From contig CAJNDT010005757.1 in assembly GCA_905221615.1 (NCBI GenBank), forward strand, positions 1-64,000: a stretch of DNA of 64,000 nt, written 5' to 3'. The translations under genes were made by a program, and so were the position numbers. Positions 2,025 to 19,390 of this stretch are shown here, piece after piece. Position 1 is the stretch's first letter; each line of letters opens with the position of its first letter. The stretch is from Symbiodinium sp. CCMP2592 (taxonomy: Eukaryota; Sar; Dinophyceae; Suessiales; Symbiodiniaceae). A model generated the notes under the pieces. The model did not search any database and was not told the DNA's origin. It saw nothing but the letters and a program-made list of their open reading frames with translations.

Positions 2025-2186
2025 TGGGACCATGCCACGTAGTGTGTACGGACTCTAGTGACTAGTGAGTGGATGCGCAAGAATTTCTTGACCTGGCCGC
2101 AATCAACATATGTGTGTTCAAGATCGAGTCCCTTAGTGCTGCAGTGGTGCTTCCAGGCAGAGTGCCAGAGACAGTCGCCGAGAGCA

Positions 2187-2618: not shown

Positions 2619-2681
2619 TAAGGTCAGCAATGATCCCTGAACCCTCCCCCCACAAAGCCTAGATAAGCCTTACTGACTGAG

Positions 2682-4305
2682 GTGAAGGTGAAAGCTCTGC
2701 TCGAGCGAGTTCATAGTGCATGGGATGCTGCGGTCACGGCTGACCTGCCACAACAAACAGCGCTGCAACTGCTCTTCATATTGACCAATCTGAAGCCGAC
2801 CACAAAGGTCAGTGAACTCAGGGTCGATATGAAATACAGCTTGCTTGGTCAGCGATGTGAGAATGCCCATAGGCGTCAATCCGTCTGCGATAGCAGCAGT
2901 TGGAACCGCATAGCCAAACCGGTTCTGGGACTGGGGGTGAATATGTCTGAGCATTCTGTTGACAGGGTTGCCTTGGAGTGTGGATGGCAGTCCACATGGA
3001 TGACCGAGGATGTCACGACCTATGCCAGGCGTAGAGCGAGAGCAAGGCAGTCCACTGAGACGCAGGGACGTCTCAGTTTCAATCCGAGTCCTGCTCCAGC
3101 TGCCCCGCCAACGGTTCCGCCGTCGGAAGGCAGAGTGCCAGACGTGGTCCGTTCTGGTCCTTTGCCAACGACTGCTCCTAGTTCCAATCCAAGCCAGGCT
3201 GTGGGTCGCAGCCCGGCTGGGGAACAAGGCAGAGTGCCGATTCAACAGCCGCCTGCCTCCCCTCATGCCGTTCCGGGTTCCAATGCAAGCCAGGCAACCG
3301 AAGGCAGCCAGGCTGCAGGAAGTGAACAAGACAGAGTGCCGAGGGTTGTGGAAGGCAGAGTGCCAGTTGATGGGAATGCTCCTGCCATGGATGACGATGG
3401 TCTAGCGCCGGCAGAGGCAGAGATCAGGCCCGATCAGGAGATCGTCATGCCTCCTGCAGAAGTGACCACTGCACCTCAAACAGTTGAGTTGCCAGAGCCA
3501 GACACCTCCACGAACAGTGACTCGACAGCCGGTGCTGACGTGAATGCCGTTGTGCCCTTTGCGACACCCAAGTCGAAAGCCAAAGCAAAAGCCAAGGGCA
3601 AGTCGAAAGCCAAGGCCAAGTCCAAGGCCAGGGCGACGGCACCAAACACAGAGTCGCAGGACGAGGTCGCAGTCGAGGTCGATGATGAGGTCATGGCCGA
3701 GGCCGGGGCCGAGGTCGAGGCCGGGGCCGAGGTCGAGGCCGAGGTCGAGCGCGAGGCCGACGACAGTGCCTTCTTTGAGGAGGAGGAGGAGGATGCTCCG
3801 AATGAGTCGAGCAGACCTGCGAACCGGTGGAACCAGGACCTCTGTGTCATTTGCCATTCGGAGATGCACCCGGGCCAGGCAGGCTGGTTTCGTTTGCCTT
3901 TGGTTAATGAACCATTGATAGTGGTGCCTGTCCTGTTTGTACATTCCACTAATCCTCAGAACAGTACCTCTCACATGACGTGTCTTTTTCTGTTGCTTCC
4001 CTGGAATGCAGGCATTGGAAGCGCTATCGTGTGGCCACCTCTTTCACAGCGAATGTATCAATCGATACTGTGAGTCGACCGGGCGGAACAAGGCCACCGC
4101 TTGCCCTCTCAAGTGTGCGAGCTCAGCCTCTATGGCAAGGTTCTTTTTGGGTCCGAGGGGGTCCACGGGAAGCAATGCCCCTGTTCCTGTCGAAGATGAT
4201 GCTAATGATGTGGACGCAATCGTTCAGGAAATACAAGCTCAACTCGTTGACGACCGCACTCGTGAAGAGGAAGCTCCTGAGGTCAACGACCCCGTGGTGG
4301 ACTGA
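2682..4305 (+). CDS. RING-H2 finger protein with Lys/Ala-rich and acidic middle, split by an intron
   Basis: The frame opens at 2682 after an AG and has no clear ATG there, so an upstream exon is likely. Exons 2682-3878 and 4012-4305 join in phase to rebuild a RING-H2 domain. Cys388 and Cys391 (CVIC) are in exon 1. Cys406, His408, His411 and Cys414 (SCGHLFHSEC) and the CPLKC pair at 430/434 are in exon 2. Numbering is from 2682; the last pair is spaced C-x3-C instead of the usual C-x2-C. RING-H2 domains usually act as E3 ubiquitin ligases, binding two zinc ions. The N-terminal part is Pro/Ser-rich with GRVP motifs. A KAKAKGKSKAKAK run and a Glu/Asp-rich block precede the RING. The C-terminus is acidic. 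Confidence 0.65.
3879..4011 (+). other. Inferred GC-AG intron splitting the RING domain
   Basis: The intron begins GCAGGCTGG after GGGCCAG and ends in a pyrimidine-rich tract followed by GAATGCAG, before GCATTGG. Length is 133 nt and phase is 0. Joining gives HPGQALEALSCGH, the expected spacing between the second and third zinc ligands of a RING. The direct repeat CAGGCA at both borders leaves the exact cut ambiguous by a few bases. Confidence 0.75.
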
Positions 4306-5791
4306 TTGCGTCGACAAGGTGGCTCGGTAACAAGGCAGAGTGCCACAATAACTGGCTCATGTGTATGTGTTGTCGGTGATGTGGCCTCGAGTCTTATTAA
4401 TTTTGGAGGTGTGGCAATGCCATTGTCACAGACATGTTTCTGAAGGCGGAGTGCCATGGGTTGTAACATGTGTTCCATGATCATTATGTATTGACATGAT
4501 TGTGTTGCCTTGTGTTGCATTATGCCATCAGGAATGTATGTCTCTTTGTAATCCCAGGCGGTCTGTCGATTTCACAAGGATACTGCAGATGCCTGTGGAC
4601 AAATCCGCGCCAAAGGCAGGATCCAACCTGTCCTAGAACACCAGTTGGGAGGGACCCAACAAAGGACCACGGAAGTCTGCAATGGGGTGCATCCGTGTTT
4701 AAAAAAACATATGGCCTTTGAAGGGACACCATCCCCATACCGCCCCACAGGCCCTGCAAAATCTTAGAAGACATTTGTGACACTTGTGGCATGCCCCGGA
4801 AAAATCTTATTGAATCTTATTGAATCTTATTGAATCTTATTGAATCTTATTGAATCTTATTGAATCTTATTGAATCTTATTGGTCCATCATTTTTAAAAG
4901 GGACACGACTCCAGATCGCCCCAAAAAATCTTATTGAATCTTATTGAATCTTAGAAGACATTTGTACAATTGTGGCCTACCCCGAAAAAATCTTATTGAA
5001 TCTTATTGAATCTTATTGAATCTTATTGAATCTTATTGAATCTTATTGAATCTTATTGAATCTTATCGGTTTTACAAGGGACACAGCCTCCAGCTCGCCC
5101 AAAAAATCTTATTGAATCTTAGAAGACATTTGCAGGATTGTGGACTACCCGAAAAAATCTTATTGAATCTTAGTGTTCGGGCCATCACGTTTTGAAGGCA
5201 CACCGACCCTGTACCAGACAATTGCACACATGTAGCATCCCCTCCCAAAAGTCTTGTTGGAGCTTATTGAATCTTGGGAGCTAGTTATACAATATCGAAT
5301 CCCATTGAATCGGCACAGTCCAGCTAACCCAACCAAATCCCTACGAGTAGTAACACATCTTATGATTAAGCATAAACTAGGTGGCACTCTGCCTTGAAGT
5401 ACCTTTAAACCATGGACCTCCTTAAAACCTAAAACCCTGAAGCTCTTTTAAACCCTAAACCGTTACTGTGTGTGGTAAGTTTACACATAGACCTAGGTAT
5501 ATGTATAACATACATACATACATATAGATATATGTATGGATTATATGCATACACTTATTATTGGGCATACTGCTTTCGAACATTAAACTACATCATCTAT
5601 TAATAGCACTCTGTCTTCAAATATGTGTTAATCTAATGATCATGTGCATAAATGCTTGTGTCGTCCAGTGGAACCTATTGCATGTGGTATTGAAACGGAC
5701 ATGACAATCAACTTCTAGTACCTGTTCGTACTATCCAACACATATAGTTGCTTGCAGCTTGTTGGATCAAAGATATTTAAAGTTAAGCACC
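4306..5791. other. Intergenic spacer
   Basis: No gene is supported here. The spacer holds palindromes at 4334 (+) and 5383 (reverse orientation), the AATCTTATTG array, and A/T-rich sequence with short ATGTATAT-like runs around 5500. Confidence 0.6.
4720..5175 (+). repeat. Tandem AATCTTATTG decamer array with a higher-order unit
   Basis: Blocks of the decamer AATCTTATTG are separated by a longer conserved segment containing GGGACAC, TCTTAGAAGACATTTG and a CCCGAAAAAATC junction. The GGGACAC landmark recurs near 4726, 4901 and 5069, so the higher-order period is roughly 170-175 bp. No coding capacity. Confidence 0.85.
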
Positions 5792-6802
5792 ATGGCACCG
5801 AAACCGAAGGCCAAACCGGCAGCAGCGGGGAGGATCGGCGGGGTGAGGACTCCGAAGCGACGGCCTCGTAGAGTGCCGCCAACCGGTGTGAATGGCATTG
5901 GTGAAGAAGGTGGTGGGGCGGAAGGCAGAGTGCCAGGGCCACAAATGGGTCCGCCGCCACCAACGCCTGTGAATCGGCCACCTTACCCACCTGGCCCAAG
6001 ACCTCCCGCCCCTGCGCGACATGAGTTTGAGATTGCCCAAGCTGTGGCAGAAGCGTTGGACATTATGGAGACCCCGATCATGATCAACTTCGAGCCGGAT
6101 GTGGTTACTGTTAGGGAGGGCCGCATTGTTCTGGTCACCCTTGAGAACTTGACCCCTGAAGAGATGCAACGTCGGCAGTTGGGACGGCGAATTTGTGCCA
6201 TGTGTTTCAATGCTCCAGACAACCCGCCGCCACCAATAGTGCCGCCAAGGCCGATGCCTGAAAATGGCTATCCTGGCCCTAACAATAATGCCAACAGTGG
6301 AGCTACTGAAGGCAGAGTGCCAGAAGGCAGAGTGCCGGAAGGCAGAGTGCCAGATGAGTTCGAAAGTGGAGTTCGTGGTCAAATGTTTTTTCGTTTGGAA
6401 TCTCGCCCGGATGCCTGGTTGACTGGGCCAGCTCGTGCCGAAGGTGAGATTCACGCCTCAGACTCAGATGTGATTGAGGAAGGTGTTCGAGATGTTCGTC
6501 TTGGTGAGCTTGGAGGGCGGGGTCGTTTGGGTATTGATTATGGGCACATCTCAGAAGAAGACCCGGACTGGAGTCAGCGCGGCTCAGCGGATGATGGAGC
6601 CCCCTCAGATGTGGAGGAAGGTGAGGAGTCAGACAATGAGGAGATGGACGCACTGGACGAAGCTCAGTCGTCCCCAGACTCAAATCAGTATGATTCTGCA
6701 GGTGAAGGCAGAGGATTTCGCATTCGTGGTCGTCGATCGGGGTATATCTCCTCAGAACCACCCTCCGACTGTGAGCCACCTGAAGATTTCTGGTGGCCCT
6801 AA
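5792..6802 (+). CDS. Pro-rich and acidic protein of unknown function
   Basis: The ATG at 5792 sits in a good context (CACCATGGC) and starts MAPKPKAKPAAAG; an earlier in-frame ATG at 5759 is less likely. The 336-residue product has a basic N-terminus, a Pro-rich segment (PPPPTPVNRPPYPPGP) and a compact region of about 80 residues ending in CAMC. Three consecutive EGRVP repeats follow at 6311-6351. After them comes a short segment and a Glu/Asp/Ser-rich tail ending DFWWP. No known domain is recognised. The triple 15-bp repeat keeps frame and looks like a local tandem expansion. It lies alone in its spacer, co-oriented with its neighbours. Confidence 0.65.
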   Translation: MAPKPKAKPAAAGRIGGVRTPKRRPRRVPPTGVNGIGEEGGGAEGRVPGPQMGPPPPTPVNRPPYPPGPRPPAPARHEFEIAQAVAEALDIMETPIMINFEPDVVTVREGRIVLVTLENLTPEEMQRRQLGRRICAMCFNAPDNPPPPIVPPRPMPENGYPGPNNNANSGATEGRVPEGRVPEGRVPDEFESGVRGQMFFRLESRPDAWLTGPARAEGEIHASDSDVIEEGVRDVRLGELGGRGRLGIDYGHISEEDPDWSQRGSADDGAPSDVEEGEESDNEEMDALDEAQSSPDSNQYDSAGEGRGFRIRGRRSGYISSEPPSDCEPPEDFWWP

Positions 6803-7209
6803 GGTTGATGTCTTTCAATGACAGCTTGGAAACTTTACAGAAGGCAGAGTGCCAAGAATGCTTGTGTCTGCCACCTCGGTGGCCTCGGAATCGTCGAGGA
6901 CGATGGATGGACTGCTGTGTGCGGTACCAGAAAAACGAGAATCGAGTGAGGGTCTGGCAGTGCTGTATTTGATTGCTTGAGCATGAAGTCATGGTCTGCA
7001 ACAACTATGCCACATGTGAATTTCAACGAGTGATTGCATCATGTCTGTCTCATCCTTGTGTTGTGATGGATCAATCGACTCACAAGTGTGTCAACTGCTG
7101 AATGTGCTGGTTCACAATTACGTTGTTAATTCGAACACCCTTGAGGTTAAGGTGTTACACTTTCTTGCGGATAGGACAGAGTGCCATGCACAGTGCAATT
7201 CGGAGTGCC
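6803..7209. other. Intergenic spacer
   Basis: One palindrome at 6843 and no convincing coding frame. Two further GGAGTGCCATG or GAGTGCCATG-like half copies lie just before the next ATG at 7210. Confidence 0.5.
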
Positions 7210-8259
7210 ATGTCTGCAGCAGCAGATGACCCGGCTGAAACAAGAAGAAGACTGTTAGCAGACATTCGGCGGCAGTTTGATGCAAACATCGAACTGGAGA
7301 AGAGATTCTTGGCCATTTCGAGAGGACAGGATGTTCTGCGCCTTTGCGAAGTTGACCCGTCGCTTCTGGAGTTCCATAATGAAGGTCCTTATGAAGTTCT
7401 GCCTGAGTGCAACTATGATGTGATTCTTGAAGCCAGTGGGTTTTCCTGGATGATATCAATCTGGCAACAAATGTTATCAGAAACTTTTCCCATCATGACT
7501 TCGTGGCCATGGAAGAAACAGATGAGATTCCTCATCAACTTTTGTCATTGGAAGCGGAACATAAGGCAGAGTGCCAGGTTCCACTTCCTGGAGATCTTTG
7601 CAGGGCAGGGCAACCTCAGTCGGGAGATGCTCCGTGCTGGCTGGCAGGGGCTAGCCTTGGACATCAGGTACGGCACAGATCATGATATTCTTTCTGTGAG
7701 AGGACTTCGCCTGGCTGTCAATGCTGTGTGTCAAACACACAAACACGGCCTGGTGTGGTTTGGAACTCCATGCTCTTCCTTCGTCCAACTCTGTAAATAC
7801 AGTACTGGAAGGTCCATTGCCAATGACTGGATGGGAGAACCTGAGCGATCGCTGGCATGCCAAGAAGGCAATCGTTTCATGTATGTGACGCTGCTGTTGA
7901 CTTTGCTCGCGGCTTTGAATGACAACCGGTTTGTGATCGAGCAGCCTTGCTCCAGCATGCTGTTCGACATTCCACTCGTCGATCGTGTCATGGGAATGAT
8001 CCAGGCTATGAAGGTCAAAACCTATGGTGGTGCCTTCGGCCAGCCCATCCTGAAACCGCTTCAACTGTGGAGCAACTGTCAGCACATCAATGGTATGCGG
8101 CGCAGCTATCCTTCCCATGTCAGAGGAAGTGCTGGTTGCGTTGATCGAGATGGTGAGAAGTTCACCGGTCGTCCTGAAGATCTTCAGGTGTCAGAGGAGT
8201 ACACCCCGGAGTTCGGCAAGGCTGTGGCCTTTCATATGATGAGGGATGTCCCAACATGA
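7210..8259 (+). CDS. Cytosine-methyltransferase-like (Rossmann) protein, reading frame disturbed
   Basis: The ATG at 7210 starts MSAAADDPAETRRR; the frame stays open to 8259. Around residues 126-136 is FLEIFAGQGNLS, like motif I of C5 cytosine methyltransferases (SAM binding). Around 184-191 is FGTPCSSF, placed like the catalytic Pro-Cys motif IV. EQPCSS lies near residue 243, where the ENV-type motif would be expected. These support a SAM-dependent methyltransferase fold; the substrate is unknown. Between about 7440 and 7570 the +2 frame reads more like protein (LDDINLATNVIRNFS, then MEETDEIPHQLLSLEAEH) than the annotated frame. Coding thus appears to shift frame near the TTTT run at 7443 and shift back at the palindrome at 7565. 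This could be a sequencing error, a pseudogene or an unrecognised splice. Distant alternatives are other Rossmann methylases. Confidence 0.5.
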   Translation: MSAAADDPAETRRRLLADIRRQFDANIELEKRFLAISRGQDVLRLCEVDPSLLEFHNEGPYEVLPECNYDVILEASGFSWMISIWQQMLSETFPIMTSWPWKKQMRFLINFCHWKRNIRQSARFHFLEIFAGQGNLSREMLRAGWQGLALDIRYGTDHDILSVRGLRLAVNAVCQTHKHGLVWFGTPCSSFVQLCKYSTGRSIANDWMGEPERSLACQEGNRFMYVTLLLTLLAALNDNRFVIEQPCSSMLFDIPLVDRVMGMIQAMKVKTYGGAFGQPILKPLQLWSNCQHINGMRRSYPSHVRGSAGCVDRDGEKFTGRPEDLQVSEEYTPEFGKAVAFHMMRDVPT

Positions 8260-8387
8260 ATTGTAGCTGAAGGCAGAGTGCCAATAAGGCAGAGTGCCAT
8301 AATTCTCTAGAGTTAAATGAGCTTGCTTCATCTTTCGACATTCTGTCTTGTTGGTATTCTGCTTTCCAATGTTGGGACTGGGTTGAG

Positions 8388-8494
8388 CCCTGGACCCCGT
8401 CCGTTCCCTCCACGAGGTGCCGAGGAAAATCCTCGCCGCCTCGTGGAAGGATCTGAGTGATCCGAGCTGGTGCAGCTGTGCAATGAAAATGTAG
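8388..8494 (+). CDS. Candidate short terminal exon
   Basis: After an AG at 8386-8387 one frame encodes LDPVRSLHEVPRKIL followed by SWKDLSDPSW and stops at 8492-8494. Composition is protein-like and the island lies between two genes, but no donor or partner exon was found. It could be the last exon of the methyltransferase-like gene or belong to an unseen gene. Confidence 0.25.
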
Positions 8495-8815
8495 AGAGCT
8501 TCAGTCACTCCGTGATCAGATGTGTTTGTCGGTATTGTCTCAGTTCGTATGCTGCTGTCGTGCAGGTGGCAATGACCTGGCTGGTGTCTCGACCTCCAGT
8601 TGCAGGCATCGGTGGCCTGTGTTAATCATTCCATGTGGTTGTCAGTTCAGTGCCATCTGCGATAGTTTCCTGTCTCAAGTTCGAGTGACATGATGTGGCT
8701 GCTGACATGTCATCGTGAGTCTTTGGGTTGATTTCTTAAGAATTCAATGTGTTGTGAACTGGGGCTTGTTACACAAGTGCAGGTGTGTGTCAGTATTTAG
8801 TAAGATTCAAGTACA

Positions 8816-9868
8816 GTGTTGCTTTGGAGGATTTCGGTGATGCTTCTGAAACTGTGGGTCATGCTATTGCTCCGTGATGGGCAATTGCTTAACTTGGAAA
8901 ATGATGCAAAACTGCCAGCGAGAGCAGCTTGGCTCTCACAGGGCGAACTGTGGTGGCGTCTGGACTTGTTTTTCGATGAGAGCAACAGGAACGGCTCAGA
9001 ACGTCGACAGTACCACAAATGGTACAACTTCTTCAGTGATCTTCTCAGGAAGACCCCCTTGGCTGCGAACTGGGGGTCACATGTGCAAAGTCAAAAAGGC
9101 AGAGTGCCAAACCCTGATGCTGTACAGGAGGATGTGGCATCTTCCACAGCCTTGGCCCGATTCATGTTGCAAGCATCCTTCGACACAAGGACAGACGCCC
9201 ACAGGGAATGGTACAAGAGAAAACTGAATGATGCTATGGTACGTGTGTGTGAAACTATCAGTGATGAGCCTCTGGTCATGCAGTTGGATGAAGGCAGAGT
9301 GTCATGGTTTCTTCAATCAGCTGGGTTGGTGTCAGGCTTTGCCGCTTGGATGATGAAGTCGCTGGCAGGCAACACGTCCCGATCTTTGCGGCAGCTTTGG
9401 GAATCTATGTTCAATGCAAGGACGCTGTCTTCATCTCTCCGAGATGAATCTGAAGGCAGAGTGCCACGAGATTGGGAGGAGGTTGAAACTAGCATCTACG
9501 ACATCATCGCCTTTGCAACCATGGCAAAAAAACACAGAGCGCTTCAACCGTCGGGGCAGGCTCATGGATTTGCCAAGACAGTCGTGAATGCCTTCATGCA
9601 CATACATGAGTGTCTGTCCGAGACATTGTCAGCCGGCCTCCAGGTGTATGTCATTGGGCACTACTTGAGTGTACATGATGCTGGTGTGCCTGTGACGTCT
9701 CGCAGGGCACTTCTGGGCAAGCGTGTTCCATTGAAAAAGACTGTGGACATCAAAAGCATCTGGAAGTTGCTAGAGGGCGCTGCAAAAAGTGGGACCTCTT
9801 TGCGACAAGCCCTCATTCTCAAGAACCAGGACGAACGCAGCGACCTGCATGGTTCCTTGGTGATTTGA
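8816..9868 (+). CDS. Protein of unknown function, about 350 residues
   Basis: The frame is open from 8816 to 9868. The first 18 residues (MLLWRISVMLLKLWVMLL) look unlike the rest. In the neighbouring frame the same DNA reads VALEDFGDASETVGHAIAP before a stop at 8875, so the true N-terminus may come from that frame by splicing or after a frame error. From LRDGQLLNLEND onward the sequence is a convincing soluble protein with Trp/Phe-rich helices. GRVP motifs are at 9098 and 9455 and a diverged GRVS at about 9293. No family is recognised. The stop is followed within 10 bp by a 55-bp segment duplicated at 12127. Confidence 0.5.
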   Translation: MLLWRISVMLLKLWVMLLLRDGQLLNLENDAKLPARAAWLSQGELWWRLDLFFDESNRNGSERRQYHKWYNFFSDLLRKTPLAANWGSHVQSQKGRVPNPDAVQEDVASSTALARFMLQASFDTRTDAHREWYKRKLNDAMVRVCETISDEPLVMQLDEGRVSWFLQSAGLVSGFAAWMMKSLAGNTSRSLRQLWESMFNARTLSSSLRDESEGRVPRDWEEVETSIYDIIAFATMAKKHRALQPSGQAHGFAKTVVNAFMHIHECLSETLSAGLQVYVIGHYLSVHDAGVPVTSRRALLGKRVPLKKTVDIKSIWKLLEGAAKSGTSLRQALILKNQDERSDLHGSLVI

Positions 9869-9873
9869 TATGG

Positions 9874-9928
9874 AGTAGAATGTTGTTTTGTTAACCAGTT
9901 GTTTAAGATTAGTGAATTCTTTGTCACA
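9874..9928 (+). repeat. 55-bp repeat, copy 1 (3' flank of the preceding gene)
   Basis: AGTAGAATGTTGTTTTGTTA and the following 35 bp to GTCACAC recur at 12127-12184 with few changes and a small insertion. Copy 1 starts just after a stop codon, so the second copy may be a relic of a duplicated 3' untranslated region. Confidence 0.7.
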
Positions 9929-9938
9929 CATTCATTTG

Positions 9939-10045
9939 ATGCCACGTACCCGCGCCACAGTCGAACTAAATTCGACTACCGCTCTTGCCATGGCCGACCC
10001 GACGTTCGGCTCTTGCGCCAAGCTGTTGGCCAAGTCCAGCAGAAG
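9939..10045 (+). CDS. Candidate first exon ending at a GT donor
   Basis: The ATG at 9939 starts MPRTRATVELNSTT and continues in a protein-like way (ADPTFGSCAKLLAK) to AGAAG|GTAATG, a good canonical donor at 10046. Without splicing it would stop at 10047. Two bases are left over. An acceptor at 13098-13099 (TCCAG|C) would put the exon in phase with the long frame at 13.1 kb, making the 10.0-13.1 kb region one intron. That join is an inference without other support. Confidence 0.35.
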
Positions 10046-10214
10046 GTAATGTCGGGGGCAGAAGTATCCGCTGCGAACTCTGGGATGGCACCACGACGAC
10101 CACGACGTCCTGCTTCTTTGCGAGCAGAGGGCGACATAAGCATAGCGCGGGCAAATGCTTGCAGCTGCTAGTGGTCGTTGAGAGCCTTCATATCCCCATG
10201 GCAGAGCGGGGTGA

Positions 10215-10237
10215 CCCCATATCTCGGCCGAATGGGG
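10215..10237 (+). ncRNA. P1-like hairpin with CGGCC loop
   Basis: CCCCAT (10215-10220) pairs with ATGGGG (10232-10237); the loop ATCTCGGCCGA carries the GGCC core seen in the P1 hairpins of the structured modules downstream. No complete module follows, so it may be a fragment. Confidence 0.4.
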
Positions 10238-10351
10238 GTGGCCTAAGTCTCCGGTCCGCATGACTGTCAGAGCACGTTCGTCTTTGCAAAGACGCCGGGG
10301 AGGCCGTTACAGAAAGGGATGCTTAAGTCAGGTTGTGCATTTAATATTTAT

Positions 10352-10463
10352 GAAAGGCAGAGTGCCAAAGGCAGAGTGCCAGTAAAACTTCTCAGGGTTT
10401 AGTAGGGTTTAGTGGTTTGCTGCGCTTGCTGTTGATCAGAAAATCCTTGTCGATTCGCTTGCC
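10352..10463 (+). repeat. Unit leader repeat, copy 1, with double palindrome
   Basis: Two GGCAGAGTGCC palindromes (10356, 10370) are followed by AGTAAAACTTCTCAGGG, a TTTAGTAGGGTTTAG segment and CTTGTCGATTCGCTTGCC. The same 112 bp recurs nearly unchanged at 10916-11028. It precedes a structured module in both cases. Confidence 0.85.
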
Positions 10464-10620
10464 GGCATGTGGAGTGTGGCCGCTACCCAGGACTCGCTGT
10501 GTCTCGCACAGGGCTCTGAGGGAAGAACGTAGTGCAGGGCAGCTTACAAGTCTCCTGCCCTTACCCACGGTGCACTTCCGCCGAACGCTTCTTTCGAGAT
10601 TCAGTTCGAGTTGTGTGCTG

Positions 10621-10741
10621 CAGCACCGCTGGCCGGGTGCTGGGGGGCCGCTGCATCGAGTTTTTCGAGCTCTTGAGGCCAACGCAGAGAGCTCTGTGCT
10701 CTCTGTATGACAGTCGGACACATGGGCTAACGTGCCGGCTG
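10621..10741 (+). ncRNA. Structured RNA-like module, copy 1
   Basis: P1 is CAGCACC (10621-10627) with GGTGCTG (10636-10642), loop GCTGGCCG. GGCCAAC is at 10677-10683. P2 is CAGAGAG (10685-10691) with CTCTCTG (10699-10705). The linker is TATGA. P3 is CAGTCGG (10711-10717) with CCGGCTG (10735-10741), then a bulged A, an inner CAC/GTG and loop ATGGGCTAAC. Overlapping ORFs on either strand are not protein-like. A partial second P3, with the 3' arm only, follows at 10801-10829. Confidence 0.7.
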
Positions 10742-10915
10742 GGAGCTCCTTAGTCTCTGCGTGAGCATCGCTCGGGCGGTTCGGAGGGGAGGCCCGGTGT
10801 GACATGGGCTAACGTGCTGGCTGGGTCCGAGGTCGGCACCCGAGTGTCCTCCTCTGCAACTTGGGAGGCCGAATCGAGTATTATAGCAATTACGTCAGGT
10901 TGTGATCAATTTTTT

Positions 10916-11028
10916 GAAAGGCAGAGTGCCAAAGGCAGAGTGCCAGTAAAACTTCTCAGGGTTTAGTAGGGTTTAGTGGTTTGCTGTGCTTGCTTTTGAT
11001 CATAAACGTCCTTGTCGATTCGCTTGCC
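10916..11028 (+). repeat. Unit leader repeat, copy 2, with double palindrome
   Basis: Near-identical to 10352-10463; palindromes at 10920 and 10934. The distance between the two leaders is 564 bp, defining an irregular tandem unit that contains one structured module. Confidence 0.85.
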
Positions 11029-11082
11029 CGACCTAAACCTGAGCAGCGGGCTGGCCGAGGGGGCCCTAGAGACCTGCCAGGT

Positions 11083-11236
11083 TCCATCTTGTTGGCCGTG
11101 TTGGGGGCAGCGATCCATCCGGAGCTGAAAGCTTGGCCACTGACGCCTGCGTGGCCTCGTGGCGGCCACCCTTGGGGCCAACTCCCCTACAGCCCGAGGG
11201 GTATGACAGCAGGGCGATGCGCTAATGCGCCTGCTG
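11083..11236 (+). ncRNA. Structured RNA-like module, copy 2 (diverged)
   Basis: TTGGCC, the P1-loop core, is near 11092; its flanking stem is weak. GGCCAAC is at 11176-11182. P2 is CCCC (11184-11187) with GGGG (11198-11201). The linker is TATGA. P3 is CAGCAGG (11207-11213) with CCTGCTG (11230-11236), a base-pair change at the fifth position relative to other copies with both sides altered. The loop keeps GCTAAT. Confidence 0.55.
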
Positions 11237-11680
11237 GGGGTGGCTTAAATGGGGGGCGGGTGTGTCCTTCCCCCCCCGGTGAGATCCTAAAAGGGAGGCC
11301 GCTTGAGTTGTGTTGTAAAGAGAAGGGTGAGATAGTGCCTTCTTCAGTTCTTGCCTGTGCTCACTTTTGCGCGCAAGTGGCCCTGGGATCAGGTCTATCG
11401 TTGATCGTTTGGCATGGCCTGTAGTGGCAGTGTAGCAGCCTGCTGTAAGTTTCCACTACCCCAGCCGCCAGCTGTGCCTAGAGCCTGCTACTCACAGGGT
11501 GATTTCGGCCTGTGCCTGGTTTGTTTCTATCGGCGCGTTGCGGGCGATGTTTACGCCGAAGCAAACCAAGTCTCCGGGATCTGTTACATCGCAGGTGTGC
11601 CAAATGGCCTGCTGAGCAACAGCTGCGACGGGATCCGGCACAGCGCTGTCATCTTAATTCATTCCCTGTGAGCATGGCGA

Positions 11681-11699
11681 CCCACCTTGGCCGAGTGGG
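11681..11699 (+). ncRNA. P1-like hairpin with TTGGCC loop
   Basis: CCCAC (11681-11685) pairs with GTGGG (11695-11699) around the loop CTTGGCCGA. GGGAGGCCG follows at 11718, able to pair with the loop core. No P2/P3 was found, so it may be a partial module. Confidence 0.4.
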
Positions 11700-11884
11700 G
11701 TGGATTTCAGCAAATGGGGGAGGCCGCTAACCCATGATTAGGCTATATCTCTTTCTGCTGAGCACATGCTTTCTGTTCTCTTGGATCGACGACAGAGGCA
11801 GAGTGCCGAGGCAGAGTGCCAGTCGAACCTCTTCGGTGTTGCCTTACCTAAGGAGTAAACCCCTGCCCCACCAGGGTTGCTCCC

Positions 11885-12000
11885 CACACCATTGGCCATG
11901 TGTGAGGCGTTCGGTTTGCCTGTGTCACAGCCTTGAGGCCAACCTATCCCAGGGGCAGGGGGTAGATGACAGCCGGGCACATGGGCTAATGCGCCGGCTG
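11885..12000 (+). ncRNA. Structured RNA-like module, copy 3
   Basis: P1 is CACAC (11885-11889) with GTGTG (11900-11904), loop containing ATTGGCCAT. GGCCAAC is at 11937-11943. P2 is CTATCCC (11944-11950) with GGGGTAG (11959-11965), seven pairs including one wobble. The linker is ATGA. P3 is CAGCCGG (11970-11976) with CCGGCTG (11994-12000), loop ATGGGCTAAT. A double palindrome stands upstream at 11797 and 11810. Confidence 0.7.
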
Positions 12001-12126
12001 GGGCTGTGACCTGGTGACATCGAAGCAGTCATGCAAGTCACCGGAAGCAATACCGGACAAAGAAGGGAGGCCGTTCTTGGGACATGGCTGTGTTGTTGAG
12101 CTGGTGTGTTCCTCCGTCTCATTCAT

Positions 12127-12184
12127 AGTAGAATGTTGTTTTGTTAGCCAGTTGTTTAAGATTATAGTGAATTCTTTGTCACAC
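12127..12184 (+). repeat. 55-bp repeat, copy 2
   Basis: Second copy of the segment at 9874-9928, here followed directly by the 85-bp tandem. It lies with no coding frame upstream. Confidence 0.7.
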
Positions 12185-12345
12185 CAACCTTACCAACAAG
12201 TCGCGGTGTGTCCAGTTTTGATTCACCAGCCGCGCTTGCATGCCGATGGCCGGGCATGGGTTGTCACACGGACCTTACCAACAAGTCGCGGTGTGTCCAG
12301 TTTTGATTCACCAGCCGCGCTTGCATGCCGATGGCCGGGCATGGG
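12176..12345 (+). repeat. 85-bp tandem duplication containing the P1 hairpin
   Basis: Two copies (12176-12260, 12261-12345) share ACCTTACCAACAAGTCGCGG and continue through the P1 hairpin. They differ at a few positions only. The duplication doubles P1 but not P2/P3 of module copy 4. Confidence 0.85.
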
Positions 12346-12453
12346 GTCGCTTTGGGGGACCGTGGAAGACGGAACCGAACGAGGACTTGGGGCCAACCAC
12401 CAGAGCGGACACCTGGTGATGACAGCCAGACACATGGGCTAACGTGCTGGCTG
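12239..12453 (+). ncRNA. Structured RNA-like module, copy 4 (P1 duplicated)
   Basis: P1 CATGCC/GGCATG occurs twice (12239-12258 and 12324-12343), loop GATGGCCG. GGCCAAC is at 12391-12397. P2 is CACCAG (12398-12403) with CTGGTG (12413-12418). The linker is ATGA. P3 is CAGCCAG (12423-12429) with CTGGCTG (12447-12453), inner CAC/GTG, loop ATGGGCTAAC. After it comes TCCGAGCTCGG and GGGAGGCC, shared with the region after copy 1. Confidence 0.7.
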
Positions 12454-12800
12454 GGTCCGAGCTCGGCACCCGAGTGTCCCCCTTTGCAACATGGGAGGCC
12501 AAATATCGAGCAGAAGTACAGTAATTAGAGTGTCAGTCGAACCTCCTCAAGGTTGCCTTACCTAGCTGGATTTTCTGCGACCTCGGATCGTGTTGTCCGG
12601 GCCAGACTTCCAGGTTCCGAACAAAGAAGGGACGCCGTCCGTTCTTGGGACATGGTTGTGTTATTGAGCAGAGAACCTTGCTTGGCTTGCTGTTCGGTTG
12701 TGTTTGTCGAAGGCAGAGTGCCAACATGTTCAGAATGGGGTTTGGTGTGTGTTGCTCTACCAAGCGGCAGCTGCATGCCCGCCAATTTGGCAGCTACCGA

Positions 12801-12928
12801 CACACTGTTGGCCGGGTGTGGAGCCAGGGAAAGGGCCCCAGGGTCGTGCAGTCTAGGGGGGGGTTGGGGCCAACGGTCGGCGGGCATCCGACCATGACAT
12901 CTGGACACATGCGCTAACGTGCCAGGTG
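12801..12928 (+). ncRNA. Structured RNA-like module, copy 5
   Basis: P1 is CACAC (12801-12805) with GTGTG (12816-12820), loop TGTTGGCCGG. GGCCAAC is at 12868-12874. P2 is GGTCGG (12875-12880) with CCGACC (12888-12893). The linker is ATGA. P3 is CATCTGG (12898-12904) with CCAGGTG (12922-12928), inner CAC/GTG, loop ATGCGCTAAC. A palindrome is upstream at 12712 and GGGAGGCCG downstream at 12975. Confidence 0.7.
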
Positions 12929-13083
12929 GCCCCTCCCGAAAATGACGAAGCCCGGGTGACCCGGACTCTTCCATGGGAGGCCGAAGAATGGTGTTGCTTG
13001 CGCATGGTGTTGAAGTCCAAGTTGTACTTGTATCTCAACTATTTATTGAAGTGAACGAATCGCTCTTTGACTTGCCAGCTCAG

Positions 13084-15959
13084 GTGTGCCTGAGTCCAGC
13101 TGTGACGAGTGGCAGCTTCGAACCAATCGGTTGTACCAGGAGAGAGCTATCACTGCTATGCAGCACTGTCGACAAATCAACTTCATCGCCGATGGGTCTA
13201 CTCACAGCACCAGCGATTGTCTTGTGACAGTGGCTTGGGCGAATGAGATTTCTGCTGCAGTGTTTGCACCCATGCAAGTGATGAAGACTGGACAAGTTTC
13301 TCCACAAGACCGGTTTGACGACGACCTGCTTCTTCACATATCAAAGCGAAAGAAGCTGGAAAGGATTGCTGCATTCAGGCAGCTTCAAGCGATCAGTCAC
13401 CAAATCTGGATTTTGCACAGAGGGCGAATGGATTTGGGCTCTTTCAAGATCGCCCCCTCTCTTGGGCAGAGGCCTGTGAAAAGATATGAAAGCAGGGTGG
13501 TTTTCCAAGTTGGAAAAGAAGACAATGACATTGACCGCTGTTTTCAGTGGTTGAGGGACAATCCGGATCCGGCTGAAGGCAGAGTGCCAGAAGGCAGAGT
13601 GCCAGAAGGCAGAGTGCCACCAGCTTTTCCTCATGTCTCCTTTCTGAAGACAATGTCTGAGGATGGAGAGATCACAAATGTGCTCCCCGTCTTGCCAGAG
13701 TCAGAGAAGTGGTGGCTGAACATTCCACTGCTGGTCTTGGGCCTTGACCAGGGCAGCATCGGACTTGCTGGCATGGCCTATGCTATGCGTGAAAACATGA
13801 TTCATGTGAAATGTGACAAGATTCACAGGGCCATTCGAGATTTCAAAAACAGCATGTCGAGATGCCTCAAAGGACTCTTCCTGAAAGCACAACTTCACTC
13901 CTCTTACATCTTTGCCCTGAATTATAAACCCTTTGGAAGTGGTGGTTTCTACCAGCAGAAGAAGGAAATGCTGGCGAGTTTTGTTTCCTGCACATCACCG
14001 AGCAGAAGCTTGTTGTGGGACGCTTTTCGAGATAAGATTGCCTATGACTTAGACAGGCAGCTATCCGGTGACGAGCATGAGATTGAACATATGCTTGCAA
14101 ATGTCGAATCCTTCATGAAGAAGGGCAGCTTGGTGAAATCCTCCAGATGGTTCAGCTGGAACCAGCTATGTTGTGAGCAACTTCATGAGTTTCATGTCCT
14201 CAAAATGCTGCTGGCTGATCATTTCGGTGAAGATCAATCTTTCAGCCCTTGCTCAAGGGAAAGACTCAGCCTGTATTCCAACTCGGCGAATACACAATCG
14301 GGCAAGGAGCTCTTCGAAGGCAGAGTGCCAGAGTCCGAAGGCAGAGTGCCGGACTCTGACAATGGTGAGAGGCAGGAAGATGCACTGGGTGATTTGCAAA
14401 AGCTGTCACAGGCTGGTCGTGCCACTGATCCACGGAAAGAACTCAGCTTGTTGAAAGCCAGCATGGGGGGCTTCAAGTTGGCATACTATCTCATGACAGA
14501 AGACCTTTTCGATCACTCCAAGATATTGTACAAAGTGACCGAACCGTTGTGGACATGGTATGGGAAACAAGTAAAAAACGTTAAATCGCCGCAGGATGGT
14601 CGAGGTTATGCCGAGTTGATGACAGTGAATGATGCCTGGAAAGCAGACAAACATTTGTTGCAGATTGTCTCCAACCTGCAGAAGACCGAGTTGTGGAAGG
14701 AGCATCTGGATACTGATTTACACGAGCCCGCAGAAAAAATCATGATGTTGAGCTTGCATTTGCTGATGAACAGGGTCTGGACTTGCAGTCTTTTTTCACT
14801 TCCACCAGATGCCTATGCGGGATTGCTGTCACCTGATGCAGAAATTCGGACGATCACGGCTTTGAAGGCAAAGGGCCATCACACATCACTCTTGAGGTTG
14901 GAGTCGACATTGGCACGGTCCACTCCAAGTGTTCATGCCCGGCAACTCTTCACAGACCTGCAAGTTGGAATCAGCCATCCTTCGAGACTTTTTCTGGACA
15001 CATTGGAGGCACAGGGATATGAAGTGGCGCCTCCGGGGTCAGAAGACATTGTCGTGGATGATGTTGACACAGAGCAGGACGGGGAGATGGAGGATTCTGT
15101 GCCTGAAGAAGCAGATGACGGTGCCGGAGTTGGTGACATTTTGTTAGACGGGCAAGAGGGCAGAGTGCCAGCTCAAAGGACTGTAACAATATCGGTACCA
15201 GCATGCCCTGCAACCCACCTGCTGAGTGTTCTGGTGCAGACGCTGCCAGACAACAAGATTGTGGAAGATGTGCACAACAAGATTCGTAATGATTCTTTGT
15301 TGAACAAAACCCGCAAGCAAACATACTCCACGATTCAAACTGTGATCGAGAATTCAAACGTCTTTGAAAGCCGTTCAATCAGGCATCCGGCAAAAGTCAA
15401 ACGGGAATATTTTGAAAGGGAGTTTTGGAATGTGGACAGGAAGCGCCAAAAGTTGTGCTTCAGAGGATGTGTCCACAAGCTGCCGTCACAGTATACCGAG
15501 ATTGTCGGCGACAAGACATGGAACACCCTGTCAGAAGAGACACTCGAACGAGCATCAGCTGCGTGGTCATGGCTAATTCACTACAATGATGCAAGACTGG
15601 CATCTCAGCATGTTCCCTTGCGTGCTGGGAAGTTTAGCAGCCTTGCAGCCCCTTTGAAGATCTTGAACCATGTCTTGGATTTGACATGCTATCTCTCTCT
15701 TGGGGCAAAAACCTGGGCTGCTCTCATGTGGCCAGTGGTCCAGCATGAGGACCAGTCGACAGGAGAGATATATTTTGTTTTGAAGGCAGAGTGCCCGGAT
15801 GGTTCCAGCGTCAAGGCCTGCTGGATTCATTTGTATGAGCCCCAGTATTGGGAAGTCATCGAAACAGAGGCAGTCTTCTGGAATGGCTTCATTTGCCTCC
15901 GTCGTTGTGCTACAAGCTCAGTGTCACTTCTATCCTATATGTTGCAGCATCCCAAGTGA
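13084..15959 (+). CDS. Long exon of a large unknown protein, possibly transposase-like
   Basis: The open frame has no ATG near its start; the first codon after the upstream stop follows a likely acceptor (GCTCAG at 13083, or TCCAG at 13099), and the first internal ATG is at 13158. Some 957 codons run to TGA at 15957. Early residues include INFIADGSTHSTSD and LVTVAWANE. Later comes LLVLGLDQGSIGLAG, then a basic-aromatic stretch (DKIHRAIRDFKNS, LNYKPFGSGGF). Acidic residues at the ends of hydrophobic strands resemble an RNase H-like (DDE) core, but I cannot confirm it. GRVP motifs are at 13578, 13593, 13608, 14319, 14340 and 15159; the palindrome at 15785 is read KAEC. An acidic linker near residue 670 separates the C-terminal quarter. 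The family is not recognised. Confidence 0.55.
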
Positions 15960-16065
15960 CATGTTTTCATTTAGGATTCTGTCAACTGTCGACCCATACA
16001 GTAAATAGTACAATAAACTTATATAAGTTTTGCTGTGCTTGTTTTTGCTGACTCGACTGAGGGAA

Positions 16066-17253
16066 ATGTCACAAGCATGTCGGACTCTCGCAGACTGCCA
16101 GAATCTCGCCGAGCATGTGATCTCCCAGACTGGAAACGTAGACGAAAAAAAGCGAAAGGAGCTGCAACGAATGCGCCGTCCAAAGCTCATGAGCCTGATC
16201 GCTTCTCATCACCTTCCGGAAGATGAGGATTTCATGCGCAAAATTGAGGCTATGTATTCGACAGCCAAAGATTCAACAGAGGATGAGGATGAGGATGACA
16301 TTATCATGGGGGACTTTGTTGATGAGCTGGTTCTTGACGACCTGCTTGCTGAGGACAAACAGGAATTTAAAATGGTCTCAGACGCAGTCAGAAAACGCAG
16401 AATCAAAAGGGTGCATCAAACCTGGCAGGCCATCAAGACGCAGCAAGCAAAGGCCAAGGCAAAGGGCAAGGCCAAAGCAAAGACCAAAGCAAAGGCCAAG
16501 CCACAGGCCAAACGGAAAGCCAAGAGAAAGATTTGTCGCCCACGTATGTTGCCCAGGAAGCAACCCGCGCCTCCTGATGAAAGTGGTCAAGAGGGAGCAG
16601 AAGGCAGAGTGCCAGCACCTCCTGCTGAGGTGCCGGTGGAGCCGGAGCCTGATAATCACGTGGAGGCCGCGGAAGGCAGAGTGCCAGCCCCTCCTGCTGA
16701 GATGCCGGAGGTGCCTGCTGCAATCCCTGTCCCAGAGCCTGATGATCACGTGGAGCCCGAGGAAGGCAGAGTGCCAGCCCCTCCTGCTGAGATGCCGGAG
16801 GTGCCTGCAGTGCCTATCCCAGCACTCGAGCCACGGGAGGTTGCAGTCCGTGGCCCCCAACATCAGCGGCGGCCGAACCGTGTTGACTACCAAGGGGTAT
16901 GGACACCTGTTCAATGCCCGGAGTGTCCCAAGATCGCTGGTGAGATGAAGTACGACCCGAATCCTGGTGGCACTGACAAAGCAAAATGGTTTCTCCGAGT
17001 TCGTGTGACAGACGGCGGTCTCTTGGAAAGATTCGGAACATTTGTTATAGCTTCGATGTGGTTGCCTGATCTGCTGTGTGTTGTGTCACATTACATGAAC
17101 CCATGTGTGTCTGGCATTGAAGGCGAGTGGAGCCACCTCGTACCCTATCACTGGGGACGTGTGGCTTCCAAGATGACAGAAGCGCAGGCCAGACAACACG
17201 TCATTGACCATAGGCCCTGTTGTGGCCCGACCAGGAGGCCTGGCAACAACTAG
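16066..17253 (+). CDS. Lys/Ala-rich protein with Pro-rich GRVP repeats
   Basis: The ATG at 16066 starts MSQACRTLADCQN; an upstream in-frame ATG at 16030 gives an implausible hydrophobic leader. The product of about 395 residues has a helical N-terminus, an acidic block, a Lys/Ala run at residues 126-150 (KAKAKGKAKAKTKAKAK), then three near-identical repeats of about 30 residues. Each repeat has EGRVPAPPAE and a Pro/Glu/His tail. A C-terminal region has CPECPKIAG and many Trp/His/Cys residues that might bind zinc. The Lys/Ala run resembles that of the RING gene. The terminal 60 residues could instead be intron, since a donor near 17010 cannot be excluded. Confidence 0.55.
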   Translation: MSQACRTLADCQNLAEHVISQTGNVDEKKRKELQRMRRPKLMSLIASHHLPEDEDFMRKIEAMYSTAKDSTEDEDEDDIIMGDFVDELVLDDLLAEDKQEFKMVSDAVRKRRIKRVHQTWQAIKTQQAKAKAKGKAKAKTKAKAKPQAKRKAKRKICRPRMLPRKQPAPPDESGQEGAEGRVPAPPAEVPVEPEPDNHVEAAEGRVPAPPAEMPEVPAAIPVPEPDDHVEPEEGRVPAPPAEMPEVPAVPIPALEPREVAVRGPQHQRRPNRVDYQGVWTPVQCPECPKIAGEMKYDPNPGGTDKAKWFLRVRVTDGGLLERFGTFVIASMWLPDLLCVVSHYMNPCVSGIEGEWSHLVPYHWGRVASKMTEAQARQHVIDHRPCCGPTRRPGNN

Positions 17254-17335
17254 AGGATTCATCCTGCGCTGCAAAGAAAAGTTGTGTGTCTGTCTGTGTG
17301 CTTGCATTGATGGCAGCGGGTCCTGCTAGATTGGA

Positions 17336-17521
17336 ATGCGTCCGAGAGACTGTGTGTTTCTGCTTGGGGAAGACGGATTGCGAAAGCATGTTCGCATTTT
17401 CACACATGTGGAATTTGTCACGTGCAAGCACATGGACAATCATTTCGAGTGCCACAACCCGGAAGCCGCACAAACTAGCACATGTGGTTTGAAGCCGTGC
17501 GTGCTTGTGACTGAACAGTAG
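17336..17521 (+). CDS. Small Cys/His-containing ORF or exon
   Basis: The frame encodes DCVFLLGEDGLRKHV and continues with several Cys and His residues (VTCKHMDNHFECHN, STCGLKPCV) before a stop at 17519. It is co-oriented and close behind the Lys/Ala-rich gene, so it may be one of its later exons. Spacing of Cys/His suggests a zinc-binding segment; no family is recognised. Confidence 0.35.
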   Translation: MRPRDCVFLLGEDGLRKHVRIFTHVEFVTCKHMDNHFECHNPEAAQTSTCGLKPCVLVTEQ

Positions 17522-17533
17522 CCGTCCAGAGCA

Positions 17534-18019
17534 ATGCATTTCGCCCCGATCGAACGAGGAGAGTGTTTCTTCAGAGGCGAGCTCTCCCCAATCTTGATCA
17601 AAACCGCTTGCGAAAAATTGGCCAAAGCGCCTGACCAGTGGAAACCAGCTGAGAGATGGAATGAAGTTTATGACGACGTGCCTTGGGAAATCATGGTTCG
17701 CTACCTGCGTTACTGGCCACGTATTGGCTCCCGCATTACAGGAGGCCTCAGGCTTCTTCGACGGTACCAAGGCCCCTTCCCGAAGTGTTATCAGGTGGGT
17801 GAAGGAGAAGAACCGCTGGAGTTGCCGCGCGTTTCTCTCGTTTGTGATTTTGTTTATGTTTGGAACGACGAAGATGAACAACAACGGCAGTTTGTCCTTC
17901 AGATGAAACACCTCTCACTTGTTGCCATCCGTCTCGGTGGTCCGGGGGAACTTCCTGACCTTGATGCTGGAGCAATACCTTTGACCGACCAGCTGAGTGC
18001 AAAGTTGGGGTGGCAATAA
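17534..18019 (+). CDS. Small protein of unknown function, 161 residues
   Basis: ATG at 17534 begins MHFAPIERGECFFRG and the frame ends at 18019 with SAKLGWQ. The composition is a balanced soluble protein (RYLRYWPRIGSR, VSLVCDFVYVWNDEDE). It follows the previous small ORF by 12 bp; the two could be exons of one gene with the Lys/Ala-rich protein. Two palindromes lie just after the stop, at 18042 and 18065. No family is recognised. Confidence 0.45.
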   Translation: MHFAPIERGECFFRGELSPILIKTACEKLAKAPDQWKPAERWNEVYDDVPWEIMVRYLRYWPRIGSRITGGLRLLRRYQGPFPKCYQVGEGEEPLELPRVSLVCDFVYVWNDEDEQQRQFVLQMKHLSLVAIRLGGPGELPDLDAGAIPLTDQLSAKLGWQ

Positions 18020-18041
18020 TTAATGGATCTTGAGGCGGGAA

Positions 18042-18075
18042 GGCAGAGTGCCAGCAGCTGGGAAGGCAGAGTGCC
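18042..18075 (+). repeat. Last two + strand GGCAGAGTGCC palindromes
   Basis: Copies at 18042-18052 and 18065-18075 mark the right end of the palindrome-rich zone in + orientation. Copies elsewhere start at 598, 1596, 1688, 1704, 2156, 2407, 3129, 3228, 3354, 4334, 5924, 6311, 6326, 6341, 6843, 7565, 8272, 8288, 9098, 9455, 10356, 10370, 10920, 10934, 11797, 11810, 12712, 13578, 13593, 13608, 14319, 14340, 15159, 15785, 16603, 16675 and 16765. Confidence 0.9.
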
Positions 18076-18209
18076 AGACGTTGTCGCGTCACCCAGCTGT
18101 ACCCTGCTTCGCCTGCACGTGATTCGCTTGACAGTGTGGTCAACGCAGAAAAGCGCAACATCCAGCAGTTCGTAGCCACTTCACGCGATTTGTGCATCCC
18201 TAATACTAT

Positions 18210-19015
18210 CAAACCCTAAAACTATGGCACTCTGCCTTCTAGCCCCAAACCCTAAATACTAAAGACCCTGAAACTCTAACCCTAACCCTTTCATTACCCT
18301 CAAACCCTAACACTATGGCACTCTGCCTCCTAACCCCAAACCCTAAATATACTAAAGACCCTGAAACTCTAACCCTAACCCTTTCATTACCCTCAAACCC
18401 CTAATACTATGGCACTCTGCCTTCTAACCCCAAACCCTAAATATACTAAAGACCCTGAAACTCTAACCCTAACCCTTTCATTACCCTCAAACCCTAACAC
18501 TATGGCACTCTGCCTGCTAACCCCAAACCCTAAATACTAAAGACCCTGAAACTCTAACCCTAACCCTTTCATTACCCTCAAACCCCTAATACTATGGCAC
18601 TCTGCCTTCTAACCCCAAACCCTAAATATACTAAAGACCCTGAAACTCTAACCCTAACCCTTTCATTACCCTCAAACCCCTAATACTATGGCACTCTGCC
18701 TTCTAACCCCAAACCCTAAATACTAAAGACCCTGAAACTCTAACCCTAACCCTTTCATTACCCTCAAACCCCTAATACTATGGCACTCTGCCTTCTAACC
18801 CCAAACCCTAAATATAATAAAGACCCTGAAACTCTAACCCTAACCCTTTCATTACCCTCAAACCCCTAATACTATGGCACTCTGCCTTCTAACCCCAAAC
18901 CCTAAATATAATAAAGACCCTGAAACTCTAACCCTAACCCTTTCATTACCCTCAAACCCCTAATACTATGGCACTCTGCCTTCTAACCCCAAACCCTAAA
19001 GACCCTGAAACTGTA
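18210..19015. repeat. 91-94 bp satellite combining CCCTAA-type sequence and the reversed palindrome
   Basis: ACTATGGCACTCTGCC recurs at 18221, 18312, 18406, 18499, 18591, 18685, 18777, 18871 and 18965, so nine units. Each holds GGCACTCTGCC (the reverse complement of the left-arm palindrome), CCCCAAACCCTAAATA, an AAGACCCTGAAACTC block and a CTAACCCTAACCCTTTC block. Units differ mainly by 2-bp indels (TACTAA, TATACTAA, TATAATAA). Confidence 0.95.
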
Positions 19016-19056
19016 AACCCTGTGCCAGGTCTTCTTCATCCTCGTCTTCTCGGAAA

Positions 19057-19390
19057 AAACATTAGTTTTTTTTGTTTTAAAGTTTTTAAAAAATTTTAAA
19101 AGTTGTTTAAAGTCTTTAAAAGTATTTCAAATTCTTTTTAAAGTTTGTAAAAGCTTTTAAAAGCGTTTAAAAGTCTTTTAAAGTATTTTTAAAGCTTTTA
19201 AATGTATTTTAATGTTTTTAAAAGTCTTTTAAATATTTTAAAAGCCTTTTAAAGTTTTGAAAAGTCTTTTAAAGTTTGCAAAAGTCTTCTAAAAGTTTCT
19301 AAAAGTCTTTTAAAGTCTTCTAAAAGTTTTTAGAATGTTTTTTCTTGCATTTGAAAGTTTTTAAAAGTCTGTAAACGTCTTTAAAAGCCA
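19057..19390. other. A/T-rich block of TTTTAAAG runs
   Basis: About 330 bp of irregularly repeated AAAGTCTTTTAAAGTTTTTAA-type sequence with a period near 12-16 bp and no coding frame. It sits exactly at the change from the palindrome-rich to the palindrome-free arm. A matrix-attachment or bent-DNA role is possible but not shown. Confidence 0.7.

What the first reader, a model, noticed from the sequence alone, without database searches (positions are those of the whole stretch)
10621..12928. Five-copy structured RNA-like module with compensatory base changes
Seen directly: five modules (10.62, 11.1, 11.9, 12.3 and 12.8 kb) share the order GGCCAAC, hairpin P2, ATGA, hairpin P3. P2 arms differ completely between copies yet stay complementary: CAGAGAG/CTCTCTG, CCCC/GGGG, CTATCCC/GGGGTAG, CACCAG/CTGGTG, GGTCGG/CCGACC. 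P3 covaries too: CAGTCGG/CCGGCTG, CAGCAGG/CCTGCTG, CAGCCGG/CCGGCTG, CAGCCAG/CTGGCTG, CATCTGG/CCAGGTG. The P3 loop keeps ATGGGCTAA or a close variant. Conserved single-stranded words with covarying stems are the signature of selected RNA structure. I know no RNA class with this arrangement.
Basis: partly seen in the sequence, partly recalled or inferred. Interest (0 to 1): 0.92.

Follow-up and report, generated by a model that had tools for sequence, protein, structure and literature searches.

The report
New structured RNA in giant transposons
A dinoflagellate genome holds over two thousand copies of a roughly 230-letter RNA-like sequence whose folded shape has been kept by evolution while its letters changed; many sit in rows inside a giant jumping DNA element, and the shape matches no RNA family in the reference library.

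The parts
10558..10794 (+). module M1 (start CCCTTACC, P0 hairpin 10621-10642, junction GGCCAAC 10677-10683, first GGGAGGCC end at 10787-10794)
   Evidence: R1 core 10659-10760, 77.7 bits
10802..10874 (+). truncated extra 3' half of a module behind M1, 93% identical to the 3' half of M4
   Evidence: family D6
11089..11300 (+). module M2 (5' end unclear, P0 doubtful)
   Evidence: R1 core 11158-11255, 81.1 bits
11841..12072 (+). module M3, the most regular of the five
   Evidence: R1 core 11919-12019, 88.6 bits; fold
12271..12500 (+). module M4; its 5' part is tandemly duplicated (85-bp repeat 12176-12345)
   Evidence: R1 core 12373-12472, 76.7 bits; (family D4)
12757..12982 (+). module M5
   Evidence: R1 core 12850-12947, 82.9 bits
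13086..15959 (+). 957-aa ORF right after the array, hAT/Hermes-like transposase by predicted fold
19413..19455 (-). right terminal inverted repeat of the giant transposon that contains the array; the left end lies beyond the window start
   Evidence: alignment to contig C80 stops at 19455; inverted match to the left end at C80:1242419
1..19455 (+). portion of the giant transposon present in the window (complete copy on C80 about 32 kb)
   Evidence: long aligned pieces 97.7-99.8% identical to C80, with 9930-10322 not aligned; TIR words genome-wide

Best explanation
It is a family of structured RNA genes, 226-232 nt in five compact copies and read from the + strand. SHOWN by comparison: three helices (P1, P2, P3) at a junction with the conserved unpaired words TTGRGGCCAAC, ATGA and ATGNGCTAA, and a 5' hairpin P0. 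INFERRED: its two ends (CCYTACC and GGGAGGCC) pair to close it into one self-contained domain, and the P0 loop (GTTGGCC) docks on the junction (GGCCAAC). SHOWN: at least 59 of 100 listed copies ride in a giant TIR DNA transposon, with an array about 0.5 kb inside an end and, in the window and on C80, one just upstream of a hAT-like transposase ORF; some other copies stand elsewhere with unrelated flanks. INFERRED mechanism: the RNA is transcribed as a separate or processed noncoding RNA and works in trans as an RNA-protein particle. The invariant junction and P3 loop would be the protein-binding or active core, and the freely changing arms only scaffold. The transposon carries many diverged paralogues, either because its own proteins need the RNA or because it borrowed a host RNA gene.
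For: Covariation and its recurrence in two separate sets of copies. P0: 115 of 120 cells paired, shuffles 90.0 ± 2.7. G·T against A·C at paired positions 41 to 10 overall, 38 to 6 without the three outer pairs, 21 to 6 when the invariant T·G pair is left out too. 2,463 exact genome matches, control 0, and 2,389, control 5. Five compact copies are 226, 227, 228, 229 and 232 nt long. Of the compact loci, four pairs share 171-242 nt that cover the module and nothing else of 150 nt or more. No Rfam family at its cut-off. TIR pairs 4.2-6.7 kb apart hold no listed module in 4 of 5 cases, whereas 8 of 8 pairs 23.9 kb or more apart hold 3-9; so the module does not look like a DNA site that the transposon needs in cis. 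In the 10 TIR pairs that hold listed modules, a module lies about 0.5 kb inside an end in 10 of 10, and all modules are on one strand in 9 of 10; the tenth (C91) has two on each strand, reading inward (read off by eye).
Against: No transcript data. No promoter, terminator or T-run was recognised at the ends (by eye only). The window's array stands directly upstream of an ORF, as a cis leader would. No element protein was shown to bind RNA; the one ORF folded for this (350 aa) gave pLDDT 38, useless. The P0-loop/junction pairing shows no compensation: 5 of 20 copies break it without a matching change (by eye). Copies without TIR ends are only partly understood: some (for example the C12 array, L026) are 94-97% like window pieces and carry the transposon's hairpin word, so they look like broken transposons and not free RNA genes. 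One of 11 sites (L016) has an 8-nt flank repeat that could be a target-site duplication.
Confidence: 0.45

Rival explanations
1. Cis-acting element in the transposon's transcripts: a repeated structured 5' leader that controls translation, splicing or stability of the genes downstream (the transposase above all).
For: M5 ends at 12982 and the transposase ORF opens at 13086; the other array lies about 0.5 kb inside an end; on C80 and in the window the modules are on the strand of the long ORFs read here as the element's; four of the five shortest TIR pairs hold no listed module.
Against: 29 of 100 listed copies have no TIR within 60 kb, though part of these look like broken elements; compact copies have unrelated flanks; the left-end array on C80 lies about 2 kb from the next + strand ORF of 180 aa or more; 3 to 9 diverged copies per large element are more than a leader needs.
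Confidence: 0.25
2. Self-cleaving or otherwise catalytic RNA: each module would cut or join its own transcript and so release unit RNAs from the arrays.
For: Closed multi-helix domain with invariant unpaired words and a possible loop-junction contact (inference); tandem arrays (720-bp units four times in L026, a 265-bp spacing in L006).
Against: No match to any catalytic family in Rfam; no known core recognised; catalysis not testable here.
Confidence: 0.13
3. SINE-like retroposon with a structured body that has inserted into the transposon and elsewhere.
For: Dispersed on both genome strands, thousands of copies; compact copies with unrelated flanks; an 8-nt flank repeat at one site, L016, and a 7-nt one at L010.
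Against: At the other 9 of 11 sites the longest shared flank word is 3-6 nt, random-site means 4.1-4.5; constant place about 0.5 kb inside transposon ends, and one strand per element in 9 of 10; strong selection on structure.
Confidence: 0.08
4. A highly diverged member of a known RNA class (for example RNase P/MRP, SRP or telomerase RNA) that Rfam models do not reach.
For: Size about 230 nt, closed ends and multi-branched shape.
Against: No Rfam family near its cut-off even at permissive thresholds; thousands of copies, many in a transposon; no class-specific word recognised (recalled motifs only).
Confidence: 0.09

Closest known systems
hAT DNA transposons (Hermes)
   Different: About 32 kb with many ORFs; no Pfam match; the only copy seen at both ends shows a 5-bp and not an 8-bp flank repeat (the 8-bp rule is recalled); carries structured RNA arrays.
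Transposon-borne RNAs of IscB/TnpB elements (omega RNA, HEARO)
   Same: A structured RNA of about 200 nt carried by a DNA mobile element (recalled).
   Different: No Rfam match (that HEARO is in Rfam is recalled); arrays of diverged paralogues; the nearby protein is hAT-like; no guide segment was seen (by eye).
Small self-cleaving ribozymes in eukaryotic mobile elements (hammerhead, HDV-like)
   Same: Compact RNA domain repeated in mobile elements (recalled).
   Different: No Rfam match; larger; different conserved words; catalysis unknown.
SRP Alu domain / Alu SINEs
   Same: GGCCGGGTG near the 5' end and GGGAGGCC at the 3' end look alike (recalled, probably chance).
   Different: No SRP match in Rfam; internal structure and words differ.

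Membership tests
Any of the 4227 Rfam families | covariance-model score at or above the family's gathering cut-off | tested here: not met
   window: 0 matches. Permissive: 6 matches in 9800-13600 (E 0.76-8.4, bits far below cut-off, three of them overlapping modules, two of these on the - strand) and 9 in seven loci, none at cut-off, most in TA-rich repeats, one weak one over a module on the - strand (L016, 15.6 bits, cut-off 100)
Structured RNA under selection | compensatory base changes beyond shuffled and slid controls | tested here: met
   17 sequences; two separate subsets; P0
Structured RNA under selection | transcribed | not testable with these tools
   no RNA reads available
hAT transposon (host element) | RNase-H-like transposase with helical insertion as in Hermes | tested here: met
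   by predicted fold only: (no match with E <= 0.001); D36 is D in 18 of 18 and D221 in 21 of 21 rows that have a residue there; third acidic residue not settled; no sequence match to a solved chain
hAT transposon (host element) | terminal inverted repeats | tested here: met
   602 matches, control 0, many of the 100 listed in inverted pairs; ends compared
hAT transposon (host element) | 8-bp target-site duplication | tested here: inconclusive
   one both-ended copy only: AAGAA shared at the two junctions
SINE | target-site duplications around single copies | tested here: inconclusive
   11 sites: longest flank words 3-8 nt, one of 8 and one of 7, random-site means 4.1-4.5; old copies could have lost them
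SINE | internal Pol III promoter and 3' tail | not tested
   looked for by eye only
Self-cleaving ribozyme | cleavage in vitro | not testable with these tools
   needs bench

The most novel reading that the evidence does not exclude
The RNA is a working part of the transposition machine: a giant hAT-like DNA transposon that moves with the help of its own structured RNAs (as scaffold, target selector or regulator of the transposase). That would be an RNA-assisted form of a transposon class not known (from memory) to use RNA.
Probability: 0.1. Interest if true: 0.97.

Novelty: categorically new. Interest (0 to 1): 0.82.

Why it matters
A large, strongly covarying RNA class with no Rfam relative in a eukaryote is rare, and here it comes with more than two thousand pattern matches in one genome, so structure and function can be dissected from natural variants. 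It links a structured RNA to a giant DNA transposon of dinoflagellates, whose genome expansion and gene control are poorly understood. It also gives a direct test of whether a cut-and-paste transposon can depend on RNA.

Tried and rejected
Known RNA: Rfam at gathering and permissive thresholds, nothing near a cut-off; the miRNA-like matches lie in TA-rich repeats. By my own estimate from base frequencies (no call) such numbers are expected by chance. Model R1 was run on 80 of the 100, 80 of the 119 and the 7 of 7 stretches of a tighter pattern (best 14.3 bits). The best was 25.0 bits, in three IMG/VR stretches with the same score, at a place away from the pattern hit and without the GCTAA word. 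In the 28 own-genome loci (some overlapping) R1 gave 74 matches, 73 of them 50.8-92.1 bits and one 22.1; in the window 5, and a sixth of 11.7 bits at 61458, taken as chance. The pattern P0+junction has 0 matches in IMG/VR. Thus no relative was found outside this genome, but no eukaryote collection could be searched.

Pseudoknot P0 loop/GGCCAAC: complementary and conserved, but 5 of 20 copies break it uncompensated; not claimed. Closing helix CCYTACC/GGGAGGCC: conserved in sequence, so no covariation can speak for it; a genome pattern for a longer form of it found 1 forward and 1 reverse match, the same as its control, so it gave no support. Integron attC sites: similar words in reversed order (recalled), dropped. 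ORF 8816-9868: model useless. Genome search with the covariance model: not accepted for this genome. Literature: listings only, no paper opened; none of the titles or abstract starts listed names such an RNA. Row choices: 20 distinct cores; one near-duplicate of M4 was left out of A2, then L013 and L028 were dropped from A3 because a one-base bulge shifts the columns; R1 finds both (71.4 and 77.7 bits).

Full report
Observation. The five modules are present at the stated places on the + strand, with 5 exact pattern matches and 0 in 100 shuffles. Own arms pair far better than arms swapped between modules for P1 and P2 (36 of 43 and 31 of 32 against 74 of 166 and 52 of 114). The gain is smaller for P3 (35 of 35 against 117 of 140) and for P0 (30 of 40 against 103 of 160, with M2 the bad case).

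Extent. The window belongs to a 1.098-Gb assembly in which the core pattern has 1301 forward and 1162 reverse exact matches and none for the reversed pattern; a second pattern gives 2389, control 5. These are counts of exact matches, so diverged copies are missed. The 21-nt dinoflagellate spliced-leader word (recalled) has 429 matches, control 0, so the genome is taken to be a dinoflagellate's.

Structure. Twenty distinct cores were found in the window and the 28 own-genome loci then held. Seventeen were aligned (A3), one near-duplicate and two bulged copies being left out. On the 24-pair structure 90.9% of 408 cells pair (shuffles 64.7 ± 1.6; slid by 1-3 columns 36-43%), 19 of 24 pairs have changes on both sides (shuffles 14.3 ± 1.4, 1 of 500 reaching it), and 107 cells are doubly changed (shuffles 35.4 ± 4.9, 0 of 500). 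The structure was taken from the consensus, which favours it against the slid controls; the size of the effect and the shuffles make chance untenable. Copies inside the transposon (8) and copies with no TIR pair found (9) show it separately: 92.7% and 89.4% against 66.0 and 67.9, 0 of 1000 shuffles each. P0, in 20 copies with hand-taken arms, has 115 of 120 cells paired against 90.0 ± 2.7 and 17 doubly changed against 2.8 ± 1.4. Single-sequence folding with the junction words kept open gives, in many of 20 copies but not in every one, a further 5' hairpin, a long central arm and an end-to-end closing helix; the five compact copies have a 3' hairpin with GGGAATCT. Those five measure 226-232 nt from CCYTACC to GGGAGGCC; six other copies measure 193-288.

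Strand. At paired positions G·T or T·G occurs 41 times and A·C or C·A 10 times. Without the three outermost pairs it is 38 to 6, and 21 to 6 if the invariant T·G pair is also left out. A + strand RNA tolerates the first and not the second, so RNA read in the direction of the neighbouring ORFs is the simplest reading.

Where the copies are. Of the 100 modules listed, 59 lie inside a TIR pair; 12 have one TIR on the inner side within 60 kb (one of these, on C113, lies outside its pair); 29 have none. Pairs of 23.9 kb and more hold 3-9 listed modules (8 of 8), the 11-kb pair 4, the 6.7-kb pair 1, the four pairs of 4.2-5.1 kb none. In the 10 pairs with modules a module lies about 0.5 kb inside an end in 10 of 10 (read off). 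The 29 are mixed: the C12 array (L026) and part of L019 are 76-97% like window pieces, and L026 carries the transposon's hairpin word, so they may be broken or diverged elements. The compact loci L009, L010, L011, L013 and L016 have none of the transposon's hairpin words in 4 kb. Between them, in up to 20 kb around each, matches of 150 nt or more were four pairs of 171-242 nt that cover the module, and one 498-nt repeat within the C106 flanks; so the module itself is the unit that is kept. L009/L012 and L010/L265 are duplications of larger pieces.

Function. The self-contained shape, constant length, invariant unpaired words and dispersal of the compact copies favour a trans-acting RNA. The place before the transposase ORF favours a leader. 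The arrays and closed domain leave a ribozyme open. The absence of listed modules from the four shortest transposon copies speaks against a DNA site needed in cis. None of these is shown; the mechanism confidence is 0.45 accordingly.

Known or new. No Rfam family reaches its cut-off, and no relative was found in the prokaryote or IMG/VR searches made (coverage as told under Tried and rejected). Eight listings of the paper library named nothing alike; no paper was opened, and most subscription journals and all eukaryote genomes but this one were out of reach. I therefore call it an apparently undescribed RNA class of unknown function.

Noticed in passing
window 598-18970 (49 places): The 11-nt hairpin GGCAGAGTGCC (or GGCACTCTGCC) occurs 49 times, all inside the transposon part of the window; in 70 kb of C80 81 of 81 lie inside the element. 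Several are in frame in ORFs as EGRVP. Element-specific short palindrome, possibly a protein-binding or self-marking site.
   Followed up: partly
window 13086-15959: hAT-like transposase without a Pfam family, with 30 homologues found, one cluster of 296 members.
   Followed up: yes
window 7102-8259: 385-aa ORF with words typical of DNA cytosine methyltransferases (recalled), no Pfam match.
   Followed up: no
L257:3434-4759: 442-aa ORF near the left end of the transposon with a weak C-terminal match to CDKN3/dual-specificity phosphatases (E 0.0013, below cut-off).
   Followed up: no
window 18209-19000: Tandem repeat of about 92 bp just inside the right end of the transposon (spacing seen), with CCCTAA-like words.
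   Followed up: no
window 10290-10300, 11686-11730, 12618-12640: Possible degraded module remnants (GGGAGGCC-like 3' ends, P0-like words) between the five modules, seen by eye.
   Followed up: no
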